Shown here: positions 39,291 through 42,398 of the stretch, one piece after another
How positions within the stretch are numbered: the first letter of the stretch is position 1
Layout of the letters: the number at the start of each line of letters is the position of its first letter
Position numbers and translations under genes: made by a program
Origin: Actinomycetota bacterium
Lineage (GTDB): Bacteria > Actinomycetota > Thermoleophilia > Solirubrobacterales > Solirubrobacteraceae
Direction: 5' to 3'
Assembly (NCBI GenBank): GCA_009699245.1
Contig: WLOQ01000001.1
Location: forward strand, 186,001-250,000
DNA length: 64,000 bases
Notes under the pieces: model-generated
What the model was told of the DNA's origin: nothing
What the model saw: only the letters and a program-made list of their open reading frames with translations
Database searches by the model: none

Positions 39291-40289
39291 TCACCCGAGC
39301 AGCCGCGGGACGAGGTCGCGTGCGACGAGCGTGTCGATGGACGCCCGGGTCAGCGGTGCGAGGAGCTCGATGGCCCGTTCCTGGTAGCCGGGCGCCGGGT
39401 CGTCGAGCGCGGTGCGGATCGCTGGAGCGAGGTCGTCCGTGACGAGCCGCGGGTCCAGGTCGCGCGCATGAGCGAGCGCCACATACGGCCCGGGCGCGGG
39501 CGTCGTCACGAGGACGCAGCCGTCGGCGAGCGCCTCGAGCTGGGCGATGCCGTGGTCCTCGCGGCGCGGTGCCGTGACATACACCCGCGCGCGCAGCAGC
39601 AGCTCGCGATACGCCGAGGGGCTGAGCGCTCCGGTCAGCTCGACGCCGGGCGGCAGCGAGACGGGTGCACTGGCCGGGTCCAGTCCGGCGACGACGAGCA
39701 GCTCCCCTGGGCGGCGCGCGAGGGCCCAGGCCGCGAGCACGCGGTCGAGCCCCTTCTTCTGCGGGTTGCCGGCGTACGTGACCGCCGCGATCTCGCGCGC
39801 GGCCCAGGGCGCTCCGACCCCCGCGGGCTCGACGGGCACCGGCACGACGAGCGCCGGCGCGTGCGGCGGCGGGACCTCGGCGAGCGCCTGGTCCGACCAC
39901 GGCAGCAGCAGGGGGGCCTCGCGCAGCCGCCGCCGCTCGACCGGACGCTGCCAGATGCCGTCCCGCCCGAGGCGCGTCGTCGCGGCGGGGGCGTCGAACC
40001 GGATGGCGCCCGGACGCGGCCACAGCAGCGCCGCCGTCGTCGTGCTGTAGAGGACGGTCCGGGGACGGTGGCGCTCGATGCCCTCGACGGCCGCTGCGCG
40101 TGCCGCGCGCGCCCACGCGAGGTCGGTCAGCGCGAAGGTGCGCACCGGCCGGGGCGCCGCGGCCGCGGCGACGGCGACGGTGGCGCCGGCGCGCTCGAGG
40201 GCGCCGGCGAGCTCGCGGTCGGCGGCGCGCAGGCCCGGCGTCGAGCCGAGCGAGACGAGGAGGACGTCGACGGCGGACACGCCCTCCAT
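39291..40289 (-). CDS. Glycosyltransferase, GT-B fold (GT4-like)
   Basis: 332 residues. The N-terminal domain starts with VDVLLVSLGSTPGLRAADREL. The C-terminal donor-binding domain contains TYAGNPQKKGLDRVLAAWALA, YRELLLRARVYVTAPRREDHG and AQLEALADGCVLVTT, the E-x7-E-like region of GT4 enzymes. Acceptor and donor are unknown. It follows the small membrane protein by 19 bp and sits with other glycan genes, suggesting envelope polysaccharide work. A GTG three codons in is an alternative start. Confidence 0.75.
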   Translation of the reverse strand: MEGVSAVDVLLVSLGSTPGLRAADRELAGALERAGATVAVAAAAAPRPVRTFALTDLAWARAARAAAVEGIERHRPRTVLYSTTTAALLWPRPGAIRFDAPAATTRLGRDGIWQRPVERRRLREAPLLLPWSDQALAEVPPPHAPALVVPVPVEPAGVGAPWAAREIAAVTYAGNPQKKGLDRVLAAWALARRPGELLVVAGLDPASAPVSLPPGVELTGALSPSAYRELLLRARVYVTAPRREDHGIAQLEALADGCVLVTTPAPGPYVALAHARDLDPRLVTDDLAPAIRTALDDPAPGYQERAIELLAPLTRASIDTLVARDLVPRLLG

Positions 40290-40308
40290 CCTGCCATGCG
40301 CACCCGGC

Positions 40309-40830
40309 TCAGTGGCTGTGCGCGGGCGGCAGATCACGCCGCAGGCCTGGCGTGCGGACCAGCCGGATGGTCCCGAAGGCGGTCGTGCTGTCGACGAAGA
40401 AGGTCACGCCGTCGCGCTCCTCGACGGCCGTGACGGCCAGCTCCTGGTGGCGCATCGAGAGCGCCCACAGGAGCCCGAAGCCGGCGGCGACCGCTGCCAC
40501 CTGCGGGATTGCGAGCGACGTGGCCGCTGCGACGACGGTCACGACGAGGAGCGGCCAGAGGCGGTTGAGGAGGATCCTCGCGGGCGCGATCTCGGGGAGC
40601 ATCGTGCTCGCCCGCGCTTCGCGCAGCGCGCGCTGGATGGCGGGTGACGCTTGCGTGCGGCGGCCGAGCCAGCCGCCGATCAGCGTCGCGACGACCCACC
40701 AGCCCGCGGCGACGAGCACGAGCACCGCGTCGTCATCGAGGTTCGCGGTGATCACCGCGACCACGCCGAGCATCGTCGCGGCTCCGGCGCTCAGGAGGAC
40801 CGTGCTGCGCAGGAGGTCGACGAAGCGCAT
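40309..40830 (-). CDS. Hypothetical membrane protein, 173 residues
   Basis: No named family recognised. Four hydrophobic segments lie as two pairs (about residues 10-30, 36-55, 92-110 and 113-127), separated by an Arg-rich cytoplasmic stretch (GRRTQASPAIQRALREARAS). The last 50 residues look like a soluble beta-rich domain (AVEERDGVTFFVDSTTAFGTIRLV). It lies 6 bp after otsB and 19 bp before the glycosyltransferase gene, so it is probably co-expressed with them. Confidence 0.7.
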   Translation of the reverse strand: MRFVDLLRSTVLLSAGAATMLGVVAVITANLDDDAVLVLVAAGWWVVATLIGGWLGRRTQASPAIQRALREARASTMLPEIAPARILLNRLWPLLVVTVVAAATSLAIPQVAAVAAGFGLLWALSMRHQELAVTAVEERDGVTFFVDSTTAFGTIRLVRTPGLRRDLPPAHSH

Positions 40831-40836
40831 GCGACC

Positions 40837-41640
40837 TCAGAGGGCGAGGGCCGTCAGCAGTCGACGTACGCCGAGCGGCCCGTCAACCATCGCGTCGGCT
40901 GCGCTCACGAGCTCCGGCGGGGTCTCGTCGGATGTCACGCCGAGGCACACCGCCCGCTCAAGGCGCCCGTCGCTCACGAGCGCGCGCAGCGCCGTGAAGC
41001 CATCGACGTCGGTCCGGTCATCGCCGAGGTAGAGCGCGCAGCCGATGTCTAGCCGCGCGAGCAGTCGCCGCACCGCCCCGTCCTTCCCGATCGGGACGGG
41101 TGGCCGCAGCTCGATCACGCGCCGTCCGCGATGGATGGCGAGCCCGGCGGCGAGCGCGTCGTGGCCGATGGTCTCGGCGAGCTCGACGGCGGCCGCCTCG
41201 TCGTCCGCGCCGCGCCAGTGCAGCGCCACGATCGGACCCTTGTCCTCGCGCCGCACACCGGCGGCGCGCAGCGCGTCCTCGTCGACGGCGTCGGCCGCGG
41301 CGGCCACGCGCGCACCCCAGCGCTCGACCTCCGGGTCGAGGACGGCCTTCGGGGCACCGCGGACGAGCAGTTCGGCGCCGTGGAGCCCGGCGTAGGGGAT
41401 CGTGCCGATGCCGACGATCCGCCGCGCGTCGGACGCCTGGCGCCCCGTGATGCAGCCCACGAGCGCATAGCGCTCGGTGAGGTCCTGGACCGCGCGGCGC
41501 GTCAGCTCAGGGACGCTGGCGGTATCCGGGTCGCGCACGATCGGCGCGAGCGTCCCGTCGAGGTCCAGCAGGATCGCCGACCGCTCCGGCTGCGCCCGCA
41601 GCGGGGCGAGCAACTCGTCGAGGGCGGTGGCCGGTGACAC
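40837..41640 (-). CDS. otsB: Trehalose-6-phosphate phosphatase
   Basis: HAD-superfamily phosphatase of 267 residues. Motif I LDLDGTLAPI supplies the nucleophile Asp; GLHGAELL, the Lys of the KGPIVALHWR region and GDDRTDVDGF (motif IV) fit OtsB. A cap domain lies between. The start codon is GTG, only 18 bp from the divergent ATG at 41659. The partner synthase otsA is not in the window. Confidence 0.88.
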   Translation of the reverse strand: MSPATALDELLAPLRAQPERSAILLDLDGTLAPIVRDPDTASVPELTRRAVQDLTERYALVGCITGRQASDARRIVGIGTIPYAGLHGAELLVRGAPKAVLDPEVERWGARVAAAADAVDEDALRAAGVRREDKGPIVALHWRGADDEAAAVELAETIGHDALAAGLAIHRGRRVIELRPPVPIGKDGAVRRLLARLDIGCALYLGDDRTDVDGFTALRALVSDGRLERAVCLGVTSDETPPELVSAADAMVDGPLGVRRLLTALAL

Positions 41641-41646
41641 GCGACC

Positions 41647-41652
41647 TAGTAT
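41647..41652. promoter_or_regulatory. Overlapping divergent -10 boxes of otsB and the TauE half-gene
   Basis: On the + strand TAGTAT ends 6 nt before the ATG at 41659. On the - strand CATACT or ATACTA, from the same bases, ends 6-7 nt before the otsB GTG. Only 18 bp separate the two start codons. Confidence 0.4.
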
Positions 41653-41658
41653 GGCGGG

Positions 41659-42027
41659 ATGCGGCACGAGCGCCTCTTTCAGCTCGGGGCGATCGGCCTG
41701 GCGGCGGGGCTCTTCAGCGGCCTCTTCGGTGTCGGCGGCGGGACGATCGTCGTGCCGCTGCTGATCCTCTGGCTGAAGTTCGGCGAACGCGAGGCGACGG
41801 GGACCTCGCTGGCCGCGATCGTCATCGGCGCGACGGCCGCGGTGATCCTCCAGGCGTTCTACGGGAACGTCCGCGTCGAGGAGGGGCTGCTCGTCGGCAT
41901 TCCGGCGCTCGTCGGCGTGCTCGGCGGCACCTGGCTGCAGCAGCGGGTGCCGGGCGAGGTCGTGCGGCTGCTCTTCTCACTCGTCCTCTTCGCGGCCGCC
42001 GTGATCCTCGTGGTGCGCGCATCATGA
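41659..42027 (+). CDS. TauE/SafE family half-transporter, N-terminal half
   Basis: Membrane protein of 122 residues with four helices. It opens with GLAAGLFSGLFGVGGGTIVVPLL, the first internal repeat of TauE/SafE (sulfite/anion exporters), and continues ATGTSLAAIVIGATAA. Family members are normally about 250 residues with two such repeats in one chain. The product here ends after one repeat, and the next gene encodes the other. The pair probably forms a heterodimer. Confidence 0.82.
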   Translation: MRHERLFQLGAIGLAAGLFSGLFGVGGGTIVVPLLILWLKFGEREATGTSLAAIVIGATAAVILQAFYGNVRVEEGLLVGIPALVGVLGGTWLQQRVPGEVVRLLFSLVLFAAAVILVVRAS

Positions 42028-42398
42028 TCGCCGAGGCCATCCTCATCGGCGTCGCCGCGGGCGTGCTCTCCGGGCTGCTCGGGATCGGCGGCGGAGCGCT
42101 CTTCGTCCCCGGTCTCGTCCTGATCCTCGGGCTCAGCCAGGTCGAGGCGGAGGCCACGTCGCTGCTCGCGATCGTCCCCGTCGCACTGCTCGGCGCCTGG
42201 CGCCAGCACGGCTACGGCAACCTGCGCGTGCGCCACGGCGCGATCATCGGCGTCGCGTCGATCCCCGGCGCGCTCGTCGGCGTCGTGCTCGTGAACGTCC
42301 TCCCCGAGCGCGCCATCGAATACGGGTTCGCGCTCCTGCTCGTCGTCCTCTCGTGGCAGATGTTCCGCGGCGCGCTCGCGCAGCTGCGCCGGTCCTGA
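42024..42398 (+). CDS. TauE/SafE family half-transporter, C-terminal half
   Basis: 124 residues and four helices. It starts with GVAAGVLSGLLGIGGGALFVPGL, nearly the same as the motif of the preceding gene, followed by ATSLLAIVPVALLGAWRQ. The ATG overlaps the previous stop by 4 bp (ATGA), so stoichiometric translation is expected. Each half has its own proper start and stop; a frameshift artefact is unlikely because both have an N-terminal start motif. Confidence 0.82.
   Translation: MIAEAILIGVAAGVLSGLLGIGGGALFVPGLVLILGLSQVEAEATSLLAIVPVALLGAWRQHGYGNLRVRHGAIIGVASIPGALVGVVLVNVLPERAIEYGFALLLVVLSWQMFRGALAQLRRS

What the first reader, a model, noticed from the sequence alone, without database searches (positions are those of the whole stretch)
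41659..42398. TauE/SafE transporter encoded as two overlapping half-genes
The family is normally one ~250-residue chain with two inverted repeats. Here each repeat, GLFSGLFGVGGG and GVLSGLLGIGGG, starts its own four-helix protein of about 123 residues, with a 4-bp ATGA overlap. This resembles the presumed ancestral state before gene fusion, or a stable fission, and gives a natural model for the evolution of two-repeat transporters.
Basis: partly seen in the sequence, partly recalled or inferred. Interest (0 to 1): 0.55.

Follow-up and report, generated by a model that had tools for sequence, protein, structure and literature searches.

The report
TauE/SafE transporter made of two genes
A membrane transporter family usually encoded by one gene is here encoded by two overlapping half-genes whose products probably sit upside-down to each other in the membrane, a long-lived two-gene stage of transporter evolution rather than a broken gene.

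Summary
ORFs 41659-42027 (122 aa) and 42024-42398 (124 aa) overlap by ATGA and both match Pfam TauE. The split is no error: I examined adjacent pairs in 84 of 101 related genomes, and 82 of 86 pairs are two ORFs, 79 of 86 next to a divergent otsB gene. Four are fused.

This predicts opposite membrane orientation, with the order reversed relative to ordinary one-chain TauE. A naturally fused same-genus relative folds confidently (pLDDT 92.9) as two halves, each a re-entrant helix pair plus three longer helices, resembling BacA/UppP, a known interdigitated inverted repeat. Other phyla carry lone half-genes with nearly balanced charges, as expected of dual-topology homodimers. TauE/SafE thus shows lone half-genes, oppositely oriented pairs and repeated fusions.

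The pair is best read as a stable antiparallel heterodimer from a duplication separate from that of ordinary TauE. Circular permutation is not excluded, because deep trees are unresolved. The pair is probably ancestral to its own fusions but not to ordinary TauE/SafE. Substrate unknown.

The parts
41659..42027 (+). first half-gene (up-half, 122 aa): predicted N-in/C-out half-transporter
   Evidence: charge bias +2 without the N-terminus
42024..42398 (+). second half-gene (down-half, 124 aa): predicted N-out/C-in half-transporter
   Evidence: charge bias -4
42024..42027 (+). ATGA overlap of stop and start; candidate translational coupling
   Evidence: -4 overlap in 41 and -1 in 18 of 82 split pairs; SD-like site before the second gene in only 7 of 82
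41707..41742 (+). GLFSGLFGVGGG motif, around the turn between the first two helices of half 1
   Evidence: sequence; helix boundaries by analogy with the model of the fused relative L007
42060..42095 (+). GVLSGLLGIGGG motif, around the turn between the first two helices of half 2
   Evidence: sequence; model of the fused relative L007
41647..41652 (+). TAGTAT box 6 nt before the first start codon; candidate leaderless -10 element
   Evidence: TANNNT 4-9 nt upstream in 66 of 82 split pairs, 0.5% at random positions
40837..41667 (-). otsB (trehalose-phosphatase), conserved divergent neighbour; its true start may lie at the GTG near 41640
   Evidence: PF02358; upstream and divergent in 79 of 86 pairs

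Best explanation
The two genes encode the two halves of one TauE/SafE-type transporter that works as an antiparallel heterodimer. Shown: two conserved ORFs, conserved adjacency, opposite positive-charge bias of the halves, and a confident model of a naturally fused close relative whose two halves have the same helix plan and which resembles BacA, a known inverted repeat. Inferred: the second gene is translated by coupling at the ATGA overlap; the first protein inserts N-in/C-out and the second N-out/C-in; they interdigitate as the BacA repeats do, so that the glycine-rich tips of the two helix pairs meet near mid-membrane and form the substrate site, and transport proceeds by the two halves exchanging conformations. 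The substrate is unknown; sulfur oxyanions or organic anions are only a guess from the family name. Evolution (inferred): a half-size gene like the lone ones still found in other phyla duplicated; the copies fixed opposite orientations (the N-in copy first) and stayed as two genes, with later fusions in several lineages. This duplication was probably separate from the one behind ordinary one-chain TauE, where the N-out half comes first.
For: 82 of 86 pairs split, in 80 of 84 genomes, some of them single-contig; otsB synteny in 79 of 86. Charge bias (loop1+loop3)-(loop2+C-term): first genes >0 in 104/105, second genes <0 in 104/105, ordinary first repeats <0 in 57/59, ordinary second repeats >0 in 58/59. 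Lone half-genes nearly balanced: 20 of the 22 scored with the N-terminus lie within +-2, mean -0.55, against +4.0 for first genes (91 scored) and -3.2 for second genes (46 scored). AF2 of the natural fusion L007: pLDDT 92.9, pTM 0.89, helices of 21, 10, 27, 22, 21 residues in the first half and 21, 10, 25, 22, 32 in the second; best PDB match BacA 5oon Z 14.3 over 233 residues, next non-BacA 6.1; ordinary TauE model: BacA Z 14.7, next non-BacA 5.6. BacA repeats are a re-entrant pair plus three TM helices in opposite orientation (passages of PMC5852022 and PMC5861054). Fused forms lie among split pairs. Identity: halves with each other 33.2%, lone genes with halves 33.0/32.1%, halves with ordinary repeats 25.2-27.1%.
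Against: Opposite orientation rests on charge counts and a model of a relative, not on experiment or on a two-chain prediction. Many of the 105 pairs are close relatives and not independent. Deep trees conflict: one puts the two halves together (63/70), another puts first halves with 8 of 11 ordinary second repeats (93/86); AU tests reject none of the groupings tried. A weak N/C signal remains without charged residues (67 of 74 pairs), which separate duplication does not predict. Lone genes lean slightly to one side (12 of 22 below zero, 4 above). Helical-bundle Z scores of 14 have been seen without proven kinship (tool note).
Confidence: 0.75

Rival explanations
1. Circular permutation by duplication: two tandem ordinary TauE genes (N-C)(N-C) lost their outer halves, leaving C | N as two genes split at the old gene boundary; the pair is a permuted relic of ordinary TauE.
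For: hmmscan aligns the first gene best to TauE profile 129-235 and the second to 2-111; first halves score better with the ordinary C model in 81/82, second halves with the N model in 81/81, with 66/66 correct leave-one-out controls; the second half is more N-like than the first in 67/74 pairs without charged residues; the tree groups first halves with 8 of 11 ordinary C repeats (93/86). Tandem ordinary TauE genes exist (adjacent hits in G111 and G141).
Against: In the six-frame searches both window halves aligned to the front of the profile (2-124 and 2-114). Most of the signal is Lys/Arg placement, which orientation alone would produce; the window's own halves show none without charged residues (-0.2 and -1.1), and without Lys/Arg alone both look N-like (5.4 and 4.4). 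The halves are nearer to each other and to lone genes than to ordinary repeats, and joins the two halves (63/70, weak).
Confidence: 0.3
2. Simple fission of an ordinary one-chain TauE gene, order kept.
For: Ordinary TauE is widespread, including a fused copy in this genome.
Against: The order of charge orientation and of profile match is reversed; the three fused relatives at the otsB locus have the reversed order too.
Confidence: 0.05
3. Sequencing error, pseudogene, or a programmed frameshift that really makes one chain.
For: In the window the second frame is open far upstream, so a shift could read through.
Against: 82 split pairs in 80 genomes with junctions from a 4-nt overlap to a 173-nt gap, including second frames that open only at or after the first stop (L026, L034, L056); coding-type substitution in both halves. 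Slippery sites were not specifically searched.
Confidence: 0.02

Closest known systems
Ordinary TauE/SafE (TSUP, PF01925) one-chain transporters
   Same: Pfam family, glycine-rich motif twice, same BacA-like fold in the models
   Different: One chain; its first repeat has the charge pattern of this pair's second gene, so the order is reversed
UPF0016 and DUF606 families (single genes, pairs and fusions of opposite orientation; PMC4067407, passages read)
   Same: Lone half-genes with balanced Arg+Lys, adjacent pairs with opposite bias, and fusions; the first gene of the pair N-in as in UPF0016 pairs
   Different: Other families; PMC4067407 calls DUF606 and UPF0016 the only examples known to its authors (2014)
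YdgE/YdgF antiparallel heterodimer (PMC3962082, passages read)
   Same: Overlapping genes for two homologous membrane proteins of opposite orientation
   Different: Four-TM proteins of the SMR family (family name recalled); no re-entrant pair is described in the passages read
BacA/UppP undecaprenyl-pyrophosphate phosphatase (5oon)
   Same: Best structural match for both TauE forms; each repeat a re-entrant helix pair plus three TM helices
   Different: An enzyme and one chain; catalytic residues not compared

Membership tests
TauE/SafE (PF01925) | Profile match over the curated cut-off | tested here: met
   79.6 and 82.5 bits against 32.6, each half covering about half the profile
TauE/SafE (PF01925) | Single chain with both repeats | tested here: not met
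   Two ORFs here and in 82 of 86 pairs; filed as a two-gene variant of the family, not as an ordinary member
TauE/SafE (PF01925) | Same fold as ordinary members | tested here: met
   Models of fused relative L007 and of ordinary L117 both match BacA best (Z 14.3 and 14.7); the window pair itself was not modelled as a complex
TauE/SafE (PF01925) | Sulfite or organosulfonate transport | not testable with these tools
   No assay; neighbours (otsB, AMP-binding enzyme) give no clear sulfur link
Antiparallel paired half-transporters (as in UPF0016, DUF606) | Adjacent paired genes | tested here: met
   Pairs with overlaps or short gaps
Antiparallel paired half-transporters (as in UPF0016, DUF606) | Opposite Arg+Lys bias of the partners | tested here: met
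   104/105 and 104/105
Antiparallel paired half-transporters (as in UPF0016, DUF606) | Lone genes with balanced bias and two-domain fusions also exist | tested here: met
   20 of 22 scored lone genes within +-2; fusions
Antiparallel paired half-transporters (as in UPF0016, DUF606) | Both partners needed for function | not testable with these tools
   Needs co-expression tests
BacA/UppP | Interdigitated inverted-topology repeat fold | tested here: inconclusive
   Z 14.3 with next rows near 6, on a model of a relative; catalytic residues not tested and no membership claimed

The most novel reading that the evidence does not exclude
TauE/SafE kept every stage of inverted-repeat transporter evolution alive (dual-topology single gene, oppositely oriented pair, fusion), and half-genes were duplicated and joined at least twice, in opposite orders: N-out half first in ordinary TauE, N-in half first in this lineage. 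The family would be a natural replicate experiment on whether the order of inverted repeats matters.
Probability: 0.55. Interest if true: 0.72.

Novelty: new variant of a known kind. Interest (0 to 1): 0.6.

Why it matters
Inverted-repeat transporters are thought to arise from dual-topology proteins by duplication, orientation fixing and fusion, but families that retain all stages are few; a 2014 paper knew two (PMC4067407). TauE/SafE is widespread: it was found in all 14 control genomes, bacteria and archaea. A series of lone genes, pairs and fusions in several places of the tree (five label changes), with two opposite orders, makes the route testable by swapping, fusing and splitting halves in harmless laboratory strains. 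It also suggests that TauE/SafE repeats are a re-entrant pair plus three TM helices, as in BacA, rather than the 4+4 membrane helices tabulated for TSUP in PMC7176098.

Tried and rejected
Plain fission: disfavoured by the reversed order. Circular permutation: at first my favoured reading; lowered after I saw that the diagnostic columns are mostly Lys/Arg, that the window's own halves lose the signal without charged residues, and after the identity comparison. Deep phylogeny: three repeat trees disagree and have few columns; not used as proof. Solved structures by sequence: no hit for the second half or the ordinary alignment, and only weak unrelated ones for the other two queries (E 0.91 and 0.21). 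NCBIfam: only a MamO match far below its cut-off for the first half.

Papers: ten searches counted. None of the titles and abstracts listed was a report of half-size or paired TauE/SafE genes; two searches listed only 20 of 318 and 12 of 42 papers. The 2012 TSUP family paper that I recalled is not held, so it is unread and may mention them. PMC7176098 passages (12 of 43 places) list TSUP as 4+4 or 3+4 TMS and mention no half-size TSUP.

Rows dropped before counts: pairs were examined in 84 of 101 genomes; 16 genomes with only weak or no match were not fetched, and G022 holds a single half. One search used 43 of 105 split pairs, all 91 fused pairs and 33 of 39 lone units. One search used all 105 split pairs, 91 fused and 27 of 39 lone units (12 partial, Actinomycetota or off-locus ones left out by name in the script). 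One search used 48 of 105 split pairs. One search scored 91 of 105 first genes, 46 of 105 second genes and 22 of 27 lone genes, those where a start codon was found by my rule. 'Ordinary' versus 'swapped' labels of fused proteins come from the profile sign, so their charge counts are partly circular; those of split pairs are not. One split pair, L181, came out in ordinary order by 3.5 bits on each half. In one search the fused swapped second repeats were not uniform: 29 of 32 below zero.

Full report
Observation. Two ORFs, 41659-42027 (122 aa) and 42024-42398 (124 aa), overlap by ATGA. Each matches Pfam TauE well over its cut-off. The genome (1.95 Mb, 19 contigs, 99.4% complete) also has an ordinary fused TauE elsewhere. 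The window's genus is Solirubrobacterales by inference: same-genus contigs G003:C48 and G002:C313 have the lengths of records titled Solirubrobacteraceae and Solirubrobacterales MAGs.

Is the split real? The second half was searched in 101 genomes (own plus 100 relatives) and matched in 100. I took 87 loci from 85 genomes. In 86 of these loci, from 84 genomes, two adjacent repeats were found: 82 pairs are in separate ORFs and 4 in one ORF (L007 same genus; L018, L019, L079 same family). Junctions vary: 41 overlap by 4 nt, 18 by 1 nt, and the rest have gaps of 0 to 173 nt. A trehalose-phosphatase gene (otsB) lies divergently upstream in 79 of 86, including three of the four fused cases, so these are very probably the same locus by descent. 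Against the nearest relative, L006, differences fall mostly at third codon positions in both halves.

Other forms. They hold split pairs in Actinomycetota and Chloroflexota, fused pairs of the same order in Bifidobacteriaceae, Microbacteriaceae, Ilumatobacteraceae and others, ordinary fused proteins, and lone half-genes without a partner in the fetched stretch in Clostridium, Bacteroidota, Chlorobi, Verrucomicrobia, Deltaproteobacteria and others. In one genome of unknown completeness (G183) the lone half is the only TauE match, which suggests that it works as a homo-oligomer.

Order. Against this, in the six-frame searches both window halves aligned to the front of the profile. Column by column the difference is mainly Lys/Arg: ordinary first repeats and second genes are positive in loop 2 and the C-terminus; ordinary second repeats and first genes in the N-terminus, loop 1 and loop 3.

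Orientation. Counting K+R, first genes are biased one way in 104 of 105 pairs and second genes the other way in 104 of 105; ordinary first repeats (57 of 59) and second repeats (58 of 59) follow the reverse order. Many of these pairs are close relatives. With the N-terminus counted, first genes average +4.0 (91 scored), second -3.2 (46 scored) and lone genes -0.55, 20 of the 22 scored lying within two charges of balance. That N-terminus and loop 1 are charged alike implies that the first hydrophobic stretch, broken at GGG, returns to its own side. By the positive-inside rule the first protein is N-in/C-out and the second N-out/C-in.

Structure. AlphaFold2 of the natural fusion L007, from 30 natural swapped fusions, is confident (pLDDT 92.9, pTM 0.89): helices of 21 and 10 residues around GGG, then 27, 22 and 21 in the first half, and 21 and 10, then 25, 22 and 32 in the second. 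Foldseek's top two hits are BacA (E about 5e-4); VIA-align gives Z 14.3 over 233 residues, the next non-BacA row 6.1. An ordinary TauE model gives BacA Z 14.7, the next non-BacA row 5.6. [quoted passage not shown] also PMC5861054 passages). This agrees with the charge-derived topology, obtained before the fold search. I did not see coordinates; that the first helix pair is re-entrant in TauE is inferred from the charges and from BacA.

History. In a concatenated tree of 48 split pairs, 32 swapped fusions and 8 ordinary proteins, the fused label needs five changes; one fused clade of 27 (100/97) and smaller ones lie among split pairs. The root uses ordinary TauE, two of whose eight rows fell inside, so direction is likely, not proven. 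Whether the pair shares the ordinary TauE duplication is unresolved: joins the two halves (63/70), joins first halves with 8 of 11 ordinary second repeats (93/86), and AU tests reject none of the groupings tried. Mean identities favour separate duplication: halves 33.2% to each other, 33.0 and 32.1% to lone genes, 25.2-27.1% to ordinary repeats; but sampling by similarity to second halves may inflate this, and a small non-charge signal for permutation remains (67 of 74 pairs).

Comparison. The single, pair and fusion series is known from DUF606 and UPF0016, called in 2014 the only examples known to those authors (PMC4067407 passages), and overlapping genes for an antiparallel pair from YdgE/YdgF (PMC3962082 passages). 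In UPF0016 too, the first gene of a pair is N-in while fusions have a cytosolic central loop, as ordinary TauE would by its charges. I found no paper on half-size or paired TauE/SafE in the listings of my ten searches (named in Tried and rejected). The paper that I recalled on the TSUP family is not held.

Verdict. Transport itself and its substrate are not shown.

Noticed in passing
window 41640-41659: A TANNNT box, mostly CTAGTATG in the rows I saw, lies 4-9 nt before the first half-gene's start in 66 of 82 split pairs (0.5% at random positions) within the very short otsB/half-gene divergent gap; candidate leaderless, possibly shared, promoter.
   Followed up: partly
window 40309-40830 and 39291-40337 (-): A 173-aa protein without a Pfam match follows otsB and was detected at 81 of the 108 loci searched (flanks often short), beside a glycosyltransferase in the window; conserved otsB neighbourhood of unknown function.
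   Followed up: partly
L033 (G022): At the otsB locus only about 25 residues of the first half's start are clearly recognisable next to the second half: a deletion, or an assembly collapse of the repeats, leaving one half-gene.
   Followed up: partly
L141, L207: Contigs titled Bifidobacterium breve MAGs: L141 has the contig length of a genome in the window's own genus (G012), and L207's protein is nearly identical to an Ilumatobacteraceae one (L199); the titles look wrong.
   Followed up: no
models of L007 and L117: Both swapped and ordinary TauE models match BacA/UppP far above all other rows; this disagrees with the 4+4 TMS description of TSUP in the TOG superfamily (PMC7176098) and may point to a shared origin of TauE and BacA.
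   Followed up: partly
L154 (WOR-3 contig JAFGSK010000043.1): Two divergent ORFs with two or more TauE-like repeats each directly precede a lone half-gene: at least five repeats in a row in three ORFs.
   Followed up: no
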